Shown: piece after piece, positions 5,829 to 22,141 of the stretch | How positions within the stretch are numbered: position 1 is the first letter of the stretch | How the letters are laid out: the number at the start of each line of letters is the position of its first letter | Virus record (IMG/VR): IMGVR_UViG_3300015262_000035 | Location: 1 to 22,232 of that record | Source: a virus | Strand: one strand, 5' to 3' | DNA length: 22,232 nt | Program-made: the position numbers and the translations under genes | The notes under the pieces: generated by a model | Seen by the model: the letters and a program-made list of their open reading frames with translations, nothing else | What the model was told of the DNA's origin: nothing | Databases searched by the model: none

Positions 5829-7931
5829 TTAGTTCCTCGGGACGACTTGGCTTGAAGTGCCTGGCCTCAACATGCTGCGAGATGGGTCGAAGCCTTGCGT
5901 GCCGGTGTTTGGCCGGCCAGCTTCGCGCGCCTGGTGCAGGGTTACCGACTCGCCAACCTTGCGACCGTCGAGCAGGATGCTGCTGTGCACCTGAATTGGC
6001 ATGTTCTGCTTGGTAGGGATTGGCACAACCAGCTTTCCACCACCGTCACTGCCGCGGAAGCTGTCAGCGAACGTTGTTTTGGAGATCTGCAAGGAGGCAG
6101 GCAGGATTGCGTTGGCGCCGGCAATCAACGTGTTGAAGATTGTCTGCCAACCCGTGAGAAAGAGCAGCGCGAACGACTTGAACGCCCCGCCAATGTCACC
6201 GTTAAACAGCTTGGTGAAGCCCGACTTGAGGTCGCCCCACATCAGCTTCAGCGCCTTACTCACCTCATCCCAGTTGTTCCACAGCAAGAGTGCCGCCACG
6301 GAGAGACCGATGATTACGAGCCCAACCGGGCCCAGCATCAGCGCAAGTGGCGAAATCATGAAGTACAGCGCTTGCCCAATCAGCCGGATCGGCGACAGGA
6401 ATGCCATCAGGAAGCCGCGGACAAAGCCGGACGACATGATGAAACCAGCCATGGCCTTGGCAAAATCCAGGCCGAAGACCAGCAAGGTGGTGCCGAATCG
6501 CGCAATGGCCGGGATCAGCGGGGCCAACGCCGTGCTGGTGACGAACATCATGGCCTGGCCGAGCAGCCAGAAACCGCGTCCGGCCGCGATGATCATGTTC
6601 AGCAGGCCGCCCGCAATGAGGAAAGCCGACAGTCCCATTAGGGCGTATGTCAGTGCCTTGACCTTTTCAGGATTGTCCTTCATCCATGCGGTCATCTTGA
6701 TGATGGCGCCACTGATTGCCTCAACCGCCTTGATGGCCAACGGCAAAATCACTTCGCCCAGTGCCAGCAGCAAATCATTCCACTTCTTCGCCAGCTCGAT
6801 TTCCTTGCCGGCCAACGTGGTCTTGGCGTTCTTTGTCAGCTCGTCGATGCCGGCGGCGCCGGCGTTGAGCTTCATGTTCTTCTGAATGTTGGCTTGCTGA
6901 AGGTACATCGTCGAATAGAGCTGCGAAGCGGTTCGGTTGGTGAAAATTGCACCGATTTCGTTGAGGATCGCCTGTTTGTCGGTGATGCCTTTGGCAGCAA
7001 AGGCCGGCAGCATCACGCTCTGCATCCACTTGAATGGGTCAGCCACCATCAGGTCGCTGCCAGCAACAGCGCCGGGCTTGATCTGCTTGATGTTGCCGAT
7101 CTTGTCGTAATCGACCTTCTTCGCGTCCAGCATGCCGATGCGCATCAGCTCATTGGCGGCCCGCTGCGTAGTGCGACCCTGGACCAGGTTCTGATAGGCC
7201 GACATCAGGCCTGTACCGACTCGTGAGCCACCCATTTCCTGAATCAGCGGCTCCATGCCGTAATAGAAGTTCTCATCCTTGATGCCTTTGGCCGCAACGC
7301 CACCGGTTTTGATGAAGTTCAGAAACTCGTTGGCCCCGACCCGGCCGCCGGTCGCGGTCTGGACTTGCTGGACCATGTTGGCCTGCTTGGTGAAGGCCTC
7401 TTGGCTGGCCAGGCCGCCACGCATCTCGATGACTTTGAGCATGTCCATGAAGGCCCGGTCTTTCATGGCCCCGCCTTCATCGCCATAAAGGGCGGCGTTG
7501 GCGAATTTCATCTTGGACAGCAGCGGAACTACCATTTTGGCTTCGTGGAAGTCACCGAACACGGTCTGAGCATCGCGCAGCAGGCCGAGGTTTTCGCGAA
7601 TACTGGTGCCGTAGGTGTCCATGCCTTTGGCGAAGGTCACGGCGTCGGCCGTCACCTTGTCGCCCAGGCCAAGGGAGCGAAAGCGCTCTACCTCGTTCTG
7701 GAACTTCTTGGCCTCGTCGAGCGGAGCCTTGAACATCATTGCCAGGCCCAGGCCGCCGGCCACCATCGCGCCGCCGATAGCCGCTTGCTTGCCGATCGAG
7801 GACAGCTTGGCGTTGAGTTTGTCGACGTCCTGGCCAGTGCTCGCCAAGCTTTTGCTGATGAGTGCCATGCCGGCGCTGACGTGGTTGATCAGCGACAGCT
7901 TGACAGCGACGGAATATGCTTCGGCTGTCAT
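5829..7931 (-). CDS. Tail tape measure protein
   Basis: The longest gene in the window (700 residues) lies between the chaperone block and the baseplate genes, as tape measures do. The first 60 residues are helical with heptad-like patterning (LASTGQDVDKLNAKLSSIGK), followed by a Gly/Ala-rich hydrophobic patch GGAMVAGGLGLAMM. Residues about 395-555 contain several long hydrophobic helices (e.g. VKALTYALMGLSAFLIAGG and LGPVGLVIIGLSVAALLLW), which in tape measures can insert into the host membrane at DNA ejection. At about 1.5 angstrom per residue (family rule), the tail would be near 100 nm. The C-terminal 90 residues are polar and Pro/Gly-rich. The ATG at 7931 is preceded by AAAGGGA 8 bases upstream, and the start codon lies in a palindrome (TGTCATaATGACA) that overlaps a candidate plus-strand promoter. 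Confidence 0.93.
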   Translation of the reverse strand: MTAEAYSVAVKLSLINHVSAGMALISKSLASTGQDVDKLNAKLSSIGKQAAIGGAMVAGGLGLAMMFKAPLDEAKKFQNEVERFRSLGLGDKVTADAVTFAKGMDTYGTSIRENLGLLRDAQTVFGDFHEAKMVVPLLSKMKFANAALYGDEGGAMKDRAFMDMLKVIEMRGGLASQEAFTKQANMVQQVQTATGGRVGANEFLNFIKTGGVAAKGIKDENFYYGMEPLIQEMGGSRVGTGLMSAYQNLVQGRTTQRAANELMRIGMLDAKKVDYDKIGNIKQIKPGAVAGSDLMVADPFKWMQSVMLPAFAAKGITDKQAILNEIGAIFTNRTASQLYSTMYLQQANIQKNMKLNAGAAGIDELTKNAKTTLAGKEIELAKKWNDLLLALGEVILPLAIKAVEAISGAIIKMTAWMKDNPEKVKALTYALMGLSAFLIAGGLLNMIIAAGRGFWLLGQAMMFVTSTALAPLIPAIARFGTTLLVFGLDFAKAMAGFIMSSGFVRGFLMAFLSPIRLIGQALYFMISPLALMLGPVGLVIIGLSVAALLLWNNWDEVSKALKLMWGDLKSGFTKLFNGDIGGAFKSFALLFLTGWQTIFNTLIAGANAILPASLQISKTTFADSFRGSDGGGKLVVPIPTKQNMPIQVHSSILLDGRKVGESVTLHQAREAGRPNTGTQGFDPSRSMLRPGTSSQVVPRN

Positions 7932-7934
7932 AAT
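7926..7934 (+). promoter_or_regulatory. Candidate extended -10 promoter for the plus-strand pair
   Basis: TGTCATAAT fits the extended -10 form (TGnTATAAT) with one mismatch. It would start transcription near 7940-7942, about 22 bases before the ATG at 7963. No -35 element at normal spacing was found; a TTGACA at 7900-7905 is 23 bases away, too far for the usual 16-18. The element overlaps the tape-measure start codon on the other strand, inside the perfect palindrome at 7926-7938, so a bound protein or polymerase there could affect both genes. Visual call only. Confidence 0.35.
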
Positions 7935-7962
7935 GACATTCCCTTTTGTGGTGGTGGATCAC

Positions 7963-8196
7963 ATGGCAGGTAATCAGCGCACGTATCAGTGGGTGAATGG
8001 CCGCATTCAGGATGTTGGCTCGCTGCGGGCCATTGATCCGCCCGAAGCCAGGCCGCGACCTGCATTCAAGAAAAAGCCAGTCATGGGAATCCAGACAGGC
8101 CTGTTCGTATTCACCTGCAGCAGCTTGATTCTGGTTTTTGCCGTTCCGGCTCTGCTCTTTGTGCTGTTCGTTATCTATTCAGTCGTCTTCGGGTGA
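7963..8196 (+). CDS. Small membrane protein, moron candidate
   Basis: This 77-residue product is on the strand opposite to all structural genes. Residues 1-42 are polar and basic/proline-rich (PPEARPRPAFKKKP near 27-40). Residues about 47-76 are one long hydrophobic stretch (LFVFTCSSLILVFAVPALLF onward), long enough for one membrane span or a short hairpin; the basic flank predicts a cytoplasmic N-terminus. The ATG at 7963 was chosen because the open frame further upstream is only antisense to the tape measure; GTG codons at about 7948-7956 are alternatives. The ribosome site is weak (GGTGGTGG). It ends 4 bases before the next plus-strand gene, so the two look like an operon. Position next to the tape measure recalls HK97 gp15, a membrane moron that blocks superinfection. 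No sequence family is recognised, so function is unknown. Confidence 0.65.
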   Translation: MAGNQRTYQWVNGRIQDVGSLRAIDPPEARPRPAFKKKPVMGIQTGLFVFTCSSLILVFAVPALLFVLFVIYSVVFG

Positions 8197-8200
8197 GCAC

Positions 8201-8509
8201 ATGAGAAAAACATTGATCGTCATGGCATTGGCCGCGCTCTCAACCTCGGCGATGGCTGCCGAACTCACGCTGAACGGCGAGTACGGCTGTGAAGACCAGA
8301 CCACGCAGCGTTCGCGTCAGGTGCTGATGCAGAACATCGTGTCGGACAACCCGCATTACGTGGCGCAACGCGCAGAGATGCGCGAATCGCTGGTTAACCT
8401 TTCGACCTACATGTGCAAGCCGCTGACTGGGCAATTCAAGGTGCTGCAGCGTGATGGCGCCTACGCCCTGGTGCAGGCCAAGCCAGTTCCGCTATGGGTC
8501 ACGGAGTAG
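8201..8509 (+). CDS. Exported small protein of unknown function, moron candidate
   Basis: The 102-residue product begins with a clear Sec signal peptide: MRKT, a hydrophobic core (LIVMALAALSTSAMA), and an AMA cleavage site with predicted cut near residue 19. The mature part (about 83 residues) has two cysteines, C30 and C72, which could form a disulfide in the periplasm, and no membrane span. The ATG at 8201 was preferred over upstream starts because it fits the signal peptide and has a GGTGAG site 4 bases before it. It is probably cotranscribed with the membrane-protein gene ending at 8196. Its last 11 bases overlap the end of the convergent minus-strand gene (stop at 8499), so the cassette seems packed tightly against the late operon. 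No terminator hairpin was found after it. A periplasmic partner to the membrane protein, for exclusion or conversion, is an inference. Confidence 0.72.
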   Translation: MRKTLIVMALAALSTSAMAAELTLNGEYGCEDQTTQRSRQVLMQNIVSDNPHYVAQRAEMRESLVNLSTYMCKPLTGQFKVLQRDGAYALVQAKPVPLWVTE

Positions 8510-8990
8510 AGTCGTAACCCAGCGAGGGGTGGATTGCTGAGCCGCCAACCAAACCTGAGACGGTAGCCATTCCCAGTATTCGCCGGATGTATTCCTTGTT
8601 GCGAAAAACCGCCGGCCCCATCACTGGGCGTGCCGGCATCTTTGGCGTGCCGAATTCGTGATAGACCATCTTCTCATCGGTTGAGCCAATGACCGTTTCC
8701 AGAGCGTGCGTGGTGTGCGTGATGCTTTGCTGCATCTCGCCACTGGCCAGCAAGGGCGCATCGGCCGGATATCCCATCCTGGTCTTGTGCGCCTCGGTGG
8801 AGTCGGCAAGGTCCGCCCAAGCCGGGAATGGGCCAATACCTGCCTGGTAATGGCCTATCTCGTCCTTTGCGGTCTGCTCAACCTTCACCGCGCACTTCTC
8901 AAGGCCCTCATGCAGGCTGACCAGTAACGCCACCTCTTGCGTGGCCATGTGCAGCGCCAGCGCGCCAAGGCTCTTGAATTCCACGGTCAT
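8499..8990 (-). CDS. gp10/gpG-like minor tail or tail-completion protein
   Basis: A 163-residue protein whose ATG overlaps the stop of the chaperone frameshift extension (ATGA). The early helical part contains two long helices (about residues 5-50), and the segment YHEFGTPKMPARPVMGPAVF (about 112-131) is the hallmark of HK97-gp10 / Mu virion-morphogenesis proteins, where HxxGT and MPARPF sit next to a helix. These proteins usually work in tail completion or the head-tail neck. Here the gene lies between chaperone and tape measure, not among the connectors, which is unusual, so a minor tail role is possible. No signal or membrane segment. Its 3' end overlaps the convergent plus-strand gene by 11 bases. 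Confidence 0.65.
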   Translation of the reverse strand: MTVEFKSLGALALHMATQEVALLVSLHEGLEKCAVKVEQTAKDEIGHYQAGIGPFPAWADLADSTEAHKTRMGYPADAPLLASGEMQQSITHTTHALETVIGSTDEKMVYHEFGTPKMPARPVMGPAVFRNKEYIRRILGMATVSGLVGGSAIHPSLGYDSTP

Positions 8991-21587: not shown

Positions 21588-21815
21588 TTAAACGGTTGGT
21601 TTGTCGGCGACCGGAGCGATGTTCGACTGCGGGATCGCACGCACTACAGCGATGGCAGCAGCGAGCAAGCCATTCACCGCAGCGAACAGGCCCGGGCTCA
21701 CCAGTGCCTGAAGCGATGGCCAGAAGTAAGCTATGGTGTTGAGCAGCGCCAGAAGGCCAGCCAGTTGAACGCTGTACATCTTCCAGAGCTGCTGCCATTG
21801 GGGAATCAGGTTCAT
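21588..21815 (-). CDS. Holin candidate
   Basis: The product is 75 residues from the ATG at 21815 (MNLIPQWQQLWKMYSVQLAG), whose start overlaps the previous stop (ATGA). An alternative frame adds 11 residues that sit inside the upstream gene. After a short amphipathic start there are two hydrophobic helices: about 14-35 (VQLAGLLALLNTIAYFW) and 40-61 (SPGLFAAVNGLLAAAIAVVRA). That gives the two-span class II holin layout, with a polar C-terminal tail. Class II holins of about this length lie beside packaging genes in many Pseudomonas and related phages. Holins open the inner membrane at lysis, but no endolysin gene is in the window to confirm it. Confidence 0.6.
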   Translation of the reverse strand: MNLIPQWQQLWKMYSVQLAGLLALLNTIAYFWPSLQALVSPGLFAAVNGLLAAAIAVVRAIPQSNIAPVADKPTV

Positions 21816-22141
21816 GTCTTGTCCGCCTCTTTGGTGTTGTTCAGGCATTGCTCACAGTGCAAGTATCGGCAGAGCCAGCCCTTGACCAGCGGCCAGTGGT
21901 TGGCGACGAACCAATGTCGAATCCCAGCCAATGCCAATGCTCCGTGGAAGGTGACGCCGGCAGTAGTCGGGGAGACAAACACCGTCTCGGCCCGGGTCAC
22001 GATCGCAAACCCGGCCAGCATGATCGTCGCGTAGATGACCTTGCCGACAATCCCGTCATGGACACGCGAGCTCAACATGCACCACATCGCCCATAGGCTG
22101 ATGATGCCGACGAACACGGTGCTCAACGTTTGAATGCTCAT
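21812..22141 (-). CDS. Membrane protein, antiholin or holin-partner candidate
   Basis: The 109-residue product has three hydrophobic regions: about 7-25 (STVFVGIISLWAMWCML), 33-52 (GKVIYATIMLAGFAIVT) and a weaker one near 65-85 (TFHGALALAGIRHWFVA). Its C-terminus has a Cys-His-Cys-x-x-Cys cluster (CRYLHCEQC, about 91-99) that could bind a metal. The closely similar class of Pseudomonas phage proteins, remembered from other genomes, has the same start form and position before terminase genes. GGGAG lies 6-7 bases before the ATG. It overlaps the holin candidate, so the two may work together in lysis timing. The function is not established. Confidence 0.55.
   Translation of the reverse strand: MSIQTLSTVFVGIISLWAMWCMLSSRVHDGIVGKVIYATIMLAGFAIVTRAETVFVSPTTAGVTFHGALALAGIRHWFVANHWPLVKGWLCRYLHCEQCLNNTKEADKT

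What the first reader, a model, noticed from the sequence alone, without database searches (positions are those of the whole stretch)
7926..8509. Plus-strand two-gene cassette inserted in the minus-strand tail operon (candidate moron)
A membrane protein of 77 residues and a signal-peptide protein of 102 residues lie 4 bases apart on the strand opposite to every other gene, exactly between the chaperone/minor-protein block and the tape measure. HK97 gp15, a membrane moron that blocks superinfection, also sits next to its tape measure. Their own candidate promoter, weak fit to the operon and membrane/periplasm targeting make a prophage-expressed, host-protecting or host-modifying pair plausible. 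Neither protein matches a family I know.
Basis: partly seen in the sequence, partly recalled or inferred. Interest (0 to 1): 0.68.

Follow-up and report, generated by a model that had tools for sequence, protein, structure and literature searches.

The report
Swappable gene slot inside prophage tail operon
A Pseudomonas prophage carries, backwards inside its tail genes, one constant small membrane-protein gene followed by a port where different viruses plug in different exported proteins, probably to alter or protect the host cell envelope.

Summary
Two plus-strand genes, A (77 aa, C-terminal membrane segment; 7963-8196) and B (102 aa, signal peptide; 8201-8509), lie 4 bases apart on the strand opposite to all other genes, between the neck/tail-completion gene and the tape measure gene (TMP). 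Both are real genes (dN/dS mostly 0.1-0.2).

They are not a fixed pair. A is constant: always antisense, starting 31-32 bases from the TMP start in close relatives. What follows A is exchangeable: B, C (155 aa secreted), D (zinc-ribbon membrane protein), E (lipoprotein), or nothing. In phages with 82-95% identical flanks, similarity stops at the A stop codon and resumes at the neck gene's 3' end. Six prophages found through the sheath in 399 Pseudomonas genomes all have A, with four cargo types. Two chromosomal remnants lost nearly all of the phage but keep intact slot genes. B and C share no sequence similarity, yet both are predicted as exported SH3-like domains.

This supports a moron slot acting on the envelope. 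Superinfection exclusion is the leading function, not shown. A separate promoter is not supported. No PHROG, Pfam, NCBIfam or PADLOC family covers A or B.

The parts
7963..8196 (+). Gene A: 77-aa protein, polar basic N-terminal half and one hydrophobic C-terminal segment (about residues 40-77); constant anchor gene of the slot
   Evidence: ORF and translation; hydropathy and dN/dS; conserved in 43 of the loci scanned
8201..8509 (+). Gene B: 102-aa protein with signal peptide, mature domain predicted SH3-like with helical insert and two conserved cysteines (C30, C72); exchangeable cargo
8201..8257 (+). Signal peptide of B (residues 1-19, probable cleavage after AMA)
   Evidence: sequence inspection; low model confidence there and high after it
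8191..8196 (+). GGGTGA at the A stop codon, 4 bases before the B start: probable ribosome-binding site for the cargo
   Evidence: comparison across loci; inference
7932..7962 (.). 31-base divergent spacer between the TMP start and the A start; length 31-32 in close relatives
7926..7934 (+). TGTCATAAT, extended -10-like match; not supported as a promoter
5829..7931 (-). Tape measure protein gene, right-hand border of the slot on its own strand
   Evidence: phrog_28, 2e-39
8499..8990 (-). Neck/tail-completion gene, other border of the slot; 3' end overlaps B by 11 bases
   Evidence: phrog_26, 2e-11

Best explanation
The locus is a moron slot of a temperate Pseudomonas myovirus lineage. A constant gene (A) for a small inner-membrane protein is read antisense to the tail operon, and the position just after its stop codon is a docking port where relatives carry different genes for exported or membrane proteins (here B). 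Shown: the architecture, purifying selection on A and B, cargo exchange at the A stop codon, a temperate context, and slot genes kept in two chromosomal remnants. Inferred: A and cargo are co-transcribed and translationally linked (the A stop GGGTGA serves as ribosome-binding site), they are expressed in the lysogen, and they act at the cell envelope. The likeliest function (about 0.4 on its own) is superinfection exclusion at the DNA-entry step: A in the inner membrane and the cargo in the periplasm or on a membrane interfere with the tape measure, lysozyme or conduit of incoming tailed phages.
For: A constant, cargo variable. Exchange borders exactly at the A stop codon and the neck 3' end between phages with 82-95% identical flanks. 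Six of six prophages found through the sheath have A, with cargos B x3, C, D, E. dN/dS about 0.15-0.19. Integrases and host contigs. Two chromosomal remnants keep intact B, or intact A and E. B and C modelled as exported SH3-like domains. Cargo D is an opposite-strand moron in another phage family. Known exclusion proteins of this size and place act on TMP-dependent entry (PMC10883804).
Against: No expression data and no promoter signal. No sequence relation of A to HK97 gp15 and no match to a named exclusion or defence family. A C-type gene stands in late orientation without A in L041, L046, L047, L049, so at least some cargos may be late genes. L032/L033 have lost A and B is decayed.
Confidence: 0.6

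Rival explanations
1. Moron slot with a host-fitness function other than phage exclusion: the cargos are periplasmic, lipoprotein or membrane proteins that alter envelope stress, peptidoglycan binding or competition, and A is a membrane partner or merely the upstream gene that supplies transcription and a ribosome-binding site.
For: Cargos share export, not sequence; the SH3-like fold resembles domains of cell-wall enzymes such as 3h41; slot genes persist in chromosomal remnants after loss of the phage.
Against: A alone in L101 and L124 and A constant beside the TMP suggest a role tied to the phage; no known fitness gene among the cargos.
Confidence: 0.3
2. Lytic-cycle genes: A and the cargo act late, for example in lysis timing, tail assembly at the membrane or exclusion during lytic growth, and the strand is incidental.
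For: C-type genes on the late strand in L041, L046, L047, L049; A is nearly constant in close relatives.
Against: Opposite strand in all A loci; exchangeable content and decay (L011, L032) do not suit an essential late gene; holin-like genes lie elsewhere.
Confidence: 0.12
3. Antisense regulation: the plus-strand transcript matters mainly as RNA that dampens tape measure and downstream tail genes in the lysogen, and the proteins are secondary.
For: A always starts 31-32 bases from the TMP start on the other strand.
Against: Both frames are under purifying selection, synonymous sites vary freely in B, and the transcript runs away from the TMP coding region unless it starts inside it.
Confidence: 0.05
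4. Spurious ORFs on the strand opposite to the real genes.
For: Only generic: long antisense frames are common in this G+C-rich DNA (one search lists many).
Against: A and B lie between, not over, the minus-strand genes; dN/dS well below 1; B gives a confident fold.
Confidence: 0.01

Closest known systems
HK97 gp15 moron (superinfection exclusion)
   Same: Small membrane protein gene beside the tape measure gene of a temperate phage (62 aa, NC_002167 8203-8391).
   Different: Same strand as the tail genes and followed by an annotated terminator; hydrophobic segment at the N-terminus, no detectable homology; no exchangeable partner gene reported.
T4 Imm and Sp exclusion pair
   Same: Works-like parallel only: a small membrane protein that blocks DNA entry and a protein that acts on the tail lysozyme step (PMC11436027); membrane plus exported protein as here.
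   Different: T4 is virulent; no PHROG match of A or B to any annotated family; sizes and positions of Imm and Sp were not compared here.
TP-J34 Ltp lipoprotein (target: tape measure)
   Same: Exported, membrane-tethered exclusion protein of a temperate phage; cargo E is a lipoprotein (PMC10883804).
   Different: Gram-positive host; no sequence or structure match to B, C or E was found in the PDB searches.
Opposite-strand morons at the tail genes of P2-like Pseudomonas phages
   Same: Opposite-strand accessory genes beside tail genes; a cargo D homologue sits there in a Citexvirus record.
   Different: No constant gene A in front of the cargo was seen there; different phage group.

Membership tests
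Phage moron (independent accessory gene in a late operon) | Orientation or placement independent of the flanking operon, present in some relatives and absent or replaced in others | tested here: met
   A and cargo opposite to TMP in all A loci; cargo replaced between near-identical flanks; no A in several distant relatives
Phage moron (independent accessory gene in a late operon) | Own promoter and terminator | tested here: inconclusive
   None found by consensus scan; weak -10-like match without conservation signal
Phage moron (independent accessory gene in a late operon) | Expression from the repressed prophage | not testable with these tools
   No transcript data; remnants keeping slot genes are indirect
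HK97 gp15 family | Sequence homology to gp15 | tested here: not met
   BLASTP E 0.19 over 18 residues; hhalign probability 0.5%
[quoted passage not shown]
   Needs phage challenge
Superinfection exclusion protein (any family) | Membrane or envelope location | tested here: met
   A has a strongly hydrophobic C-terminal segment; B a signal peptide; predicted only
Known anti-phage defence systems (PADLOC) | Match to a defence protein model | tested here: not met
   No match for A or B; a 0.02 hit of C to a methylase model is noise
Bacterial SH3-like domain fold (B and C) | Small beta barrel superposing on solved bacterial SH3 domains | tested here: inconclusive
   Z 4.0-5.1 to 3h41, 2krs and (for B) 2kt8, below the level the tool calls safe; repeated SH3-type hits and shared viral neighbours S5VZL2 and F5A3D7

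The most novel reading that the evidence does not exclude
A is a constant membrane adaptor and the cargos are interchangeable exported effectors of one modular exclusion system, each matched to the tape measure allele or entry machinery of particular competing phages. Lead: all 18 B loci whose tape measure could be read carry the same TMP allele (88-100% over aa 100-250), and none of 12 loci with a divergent TMP has an intact B, although linkage alone could cause this.
Probability: 0.2. Interest if true: 0.8.

Novelty: new variant of a known kind. Interest (0 to 1): 0.57.

Why it matters
It turns two orphan genes into a defined, recurrent exchange slot with a constant anchor gene and at least four exported or membrane cargo families of unknown function. 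Because the slot is easy to find (between neck and tape measure, opposite strand), it is a ready source of candidate exclusion or envelope-modifying proteins in Pseudomonas prophages. The sharp exchange border at a stop codon that may double as ribosome-binding site suggests how phages could swap accessory genes without disturbing the tail operon.

Tried and rejected
Family libraries for A and B: nothing meaningful in PHROGs, Pfam, NCBIfam or PADLOC. GenBank phages: no tblastn hit to A, B or C. PDB sequences: nothing. Promoter hypothesis: tested by consensus scan, alignment of 30 junctions, synonymous diversity (0.28-0.33 in TMP codons 1-30, mostly 0.37-0.50 further in, but 0.23 at codons 101-110) and a comparison with leaders of other tail genes; not supported. 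Homology of A with HK97 gp15: not found. Homology of A with A' of distant relatives: hhalign 71% over the hydrophobic part only, so not claimed. Sequence homology of B with C: only the signal peptides align. Structured RNA in the window: none in Rfam. Foldseek against PDB gave no significant hit for B. Literature searches found no description of this slot. T4 Imm/Sp and P22 SieA sequences were not compared directly.

Full report
WHAT IS THERE. The window is a 22.2 kb virus record holding the late operon of a contractile-tailed phage on the minus strand. In the order of transcription: terminase, portal (DUF4055), capsid, sheath, tube, a chaperone-like gene, a neck/tail-completion gene, tape measure (TMP), then hub, spike, gp25-like and baseplate J genes (several names by position only). 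Between neck and TMP lie A (7963-8196) and B (8201-8509) on the plus strand, 4 bases apart. A starts 31 bases from the TMP start, and the 3' end of B overlaps the 3' end of the neck gene by 11 bases.

REAL GENES. B was found in 14 viral contigs and two named hosts, Pseudomonas lini CC269 and Pseudomonas sp. 14P_8.1_Bac3. A accompanies it at the same place in all of them. Pairwise dN/dS is 0.03-0.24 for B, typically about 0.15, and median 0.18 and 0.19 for two length classes of A. Frames are broken in two cases: B in L011, from an isolate record, and A in L014, possibly a sequencing error.

NOT A PAIR BUT A PORT. Anchoring on the flanking genes changes the picture. In the neck-anchored set, which is not selected for A or B, 21 loci have a neck at least 65% identical plus a TMP. 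Eighteen of them carry A, always opposite to the TMP. The exceptions are L032/L033 (apparently the same virus twice, with a decayed B and no A) and L038 (another small membrane protein, A'). After A come B, C (155 aa secreted), D (zinc-ribbon membrane protein) or another exported-type ORF; other searches add E (a lipoprotein) and A with nothing after it (L101, L124). Some loci also hold Arc- and Rha-type regulators (L036, L037, L065, L094, L095) or a DUF3761 protein (L037). In pairs with 82-95% identical DNA across TMP and A, such as L111 (B) with L083 (C) or L069 (B) with L074 (C), similarity ends at the A stop codon and resumes at the neck 3' end. That is exchange of the cargo alone.

TRANSLATIONAL COUPLING (inference). 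The last codon and stop of A read GGGTGA or CGGTGA, or close variants, and lie a few bases before nearly all B and C start codons, while both cargo-less loci have GGCTGA. GGTGA fits the anti-Shine-Dalgarno sequence. The A stop therefore probably serves as ribosome-binding site for whatever is plugged in. Some other cargos bring their own site (L126, L109).

UNBIASED HOST SAMPLE. A sheath search of 399 Pseudomonas genomes gave six prophages. All six carry A; cargos are B (G001, G002, G183), C (G140), D (G251) and E (G356). Two further genomes hold remnants. G120 (L093) keeps an intact B with only a short tail of the neck gene; G097 (L096) keeps chaperone, neck, intact E and A, and the first 80 codons of TMP. 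No sheath-only remnant was seen. This suggests the host keeps slot genes, but the remnants were found through B or neck and there are only two.

STRUCTURE. The B model is confident for the mature part (about 95 pLDDT), the C model moderately so (mean 82). In both, one or two first strands are followed by a helical insert and then by the remaining strands, with conserved cysteines just before and just after the insert. Despite no sequence similarity beyond the signal peptide, both find the same viral proteins (S5VZL2 of Pseudomonas phage PaBG, F5A3D7) and the same top PDB entry, 3h41, plus bacterial SH3 domains. The Z-scores (4-5) are weak, so the SH3-like assignment is likely but not proven. 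Binding of peptidoglycan or of a periplasmic protein is a guess from the fold.

TEMPERATE CONTEXT. Sixteen of 18 relatives' records encode a tyrosine integrase, and prophages lie inside large host contigs.

TAPE MEASURE ALLELES. TMP residues of about 50-350 are replaced as a block in several loci (mostly 18-50% identity beyond residue 100), while the first 50 residues and residues 550-600 stay conserved. All 18 B loci with a readable TMP have allele I (88-100% over aa 100-250), and none of 12 divergent-TMP loci has an intact B; C and D occur with both. Some loci are near-duplicates and B is linked to TMP, so this is a lead, not a test. It matters because tail tube and tape measure changes overcome exclusion by HK97 gp15 and TMP changes overcome TP-J34 Ltp (PMC10883804), and membrane-bound SNIPE acts through TMPs (PMC13190303).

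PROMOTER. Transcription could start inside the TMP gene.

MECHANISM. My best reading is a moron slot expressed in the lysogen whose products act at the envelope, most likely on entry of other phages (about 0.4), otherwise on host fitness (about 0.3). Same-strand C genes without A in L041, L046, L047 and L049 warn that some cargos may act in the lytic cycle.

VERDICT. Observation confirmed; moron interpretation partly supported and extended; function open.

Noticed in passing
window 5829-7931 and loci L021, L023, L035, L101, L109, L113, L116: The tape measure gene exchanges its residues of about 50-350 as a block while its first 50 and residues 550-600 stay conserved; at least two divergent alleles beside the window's.
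   Followed up: partly
L135:1231-1746 (KM389404.1): A homologue of cargo D follows a DNA adenine methylase-like gene and converges on P2-like tail genes in a Citexvirus fragment, so D travels between phage families.
   Followed up: partly
L041, L046, L047, L049 between neck and TMP: C-type secreted genes stand on the same strand as the late genes, without A; in L047/L049 the helical insert is missing.
   Followed up: no
L038, L040, L043, L044, L051-L056 at the TMP start: Distant relatives carry another small membrane protein (A', motif EWLADRxxWVQYP) antisense at the same spot; homology with A not shown.
   Followed up: partly
L036:6504-8730, L037:6924-9309, L065:3243-4887, L094:7394-9002, L095:9633-11157: Arc-like and Rha-type regulator genes sit in the same slot of some relatives, which is unusual inside a tail operon.
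   Followed up: no
window 21588-21848 and 21812-22141, minus strand: Two small hydrophobic ORFs before the terminase genes (the first matches DUF7940) look like a holin pair, so lysis genes are probably not in the A-B slot.
   Followed up: no
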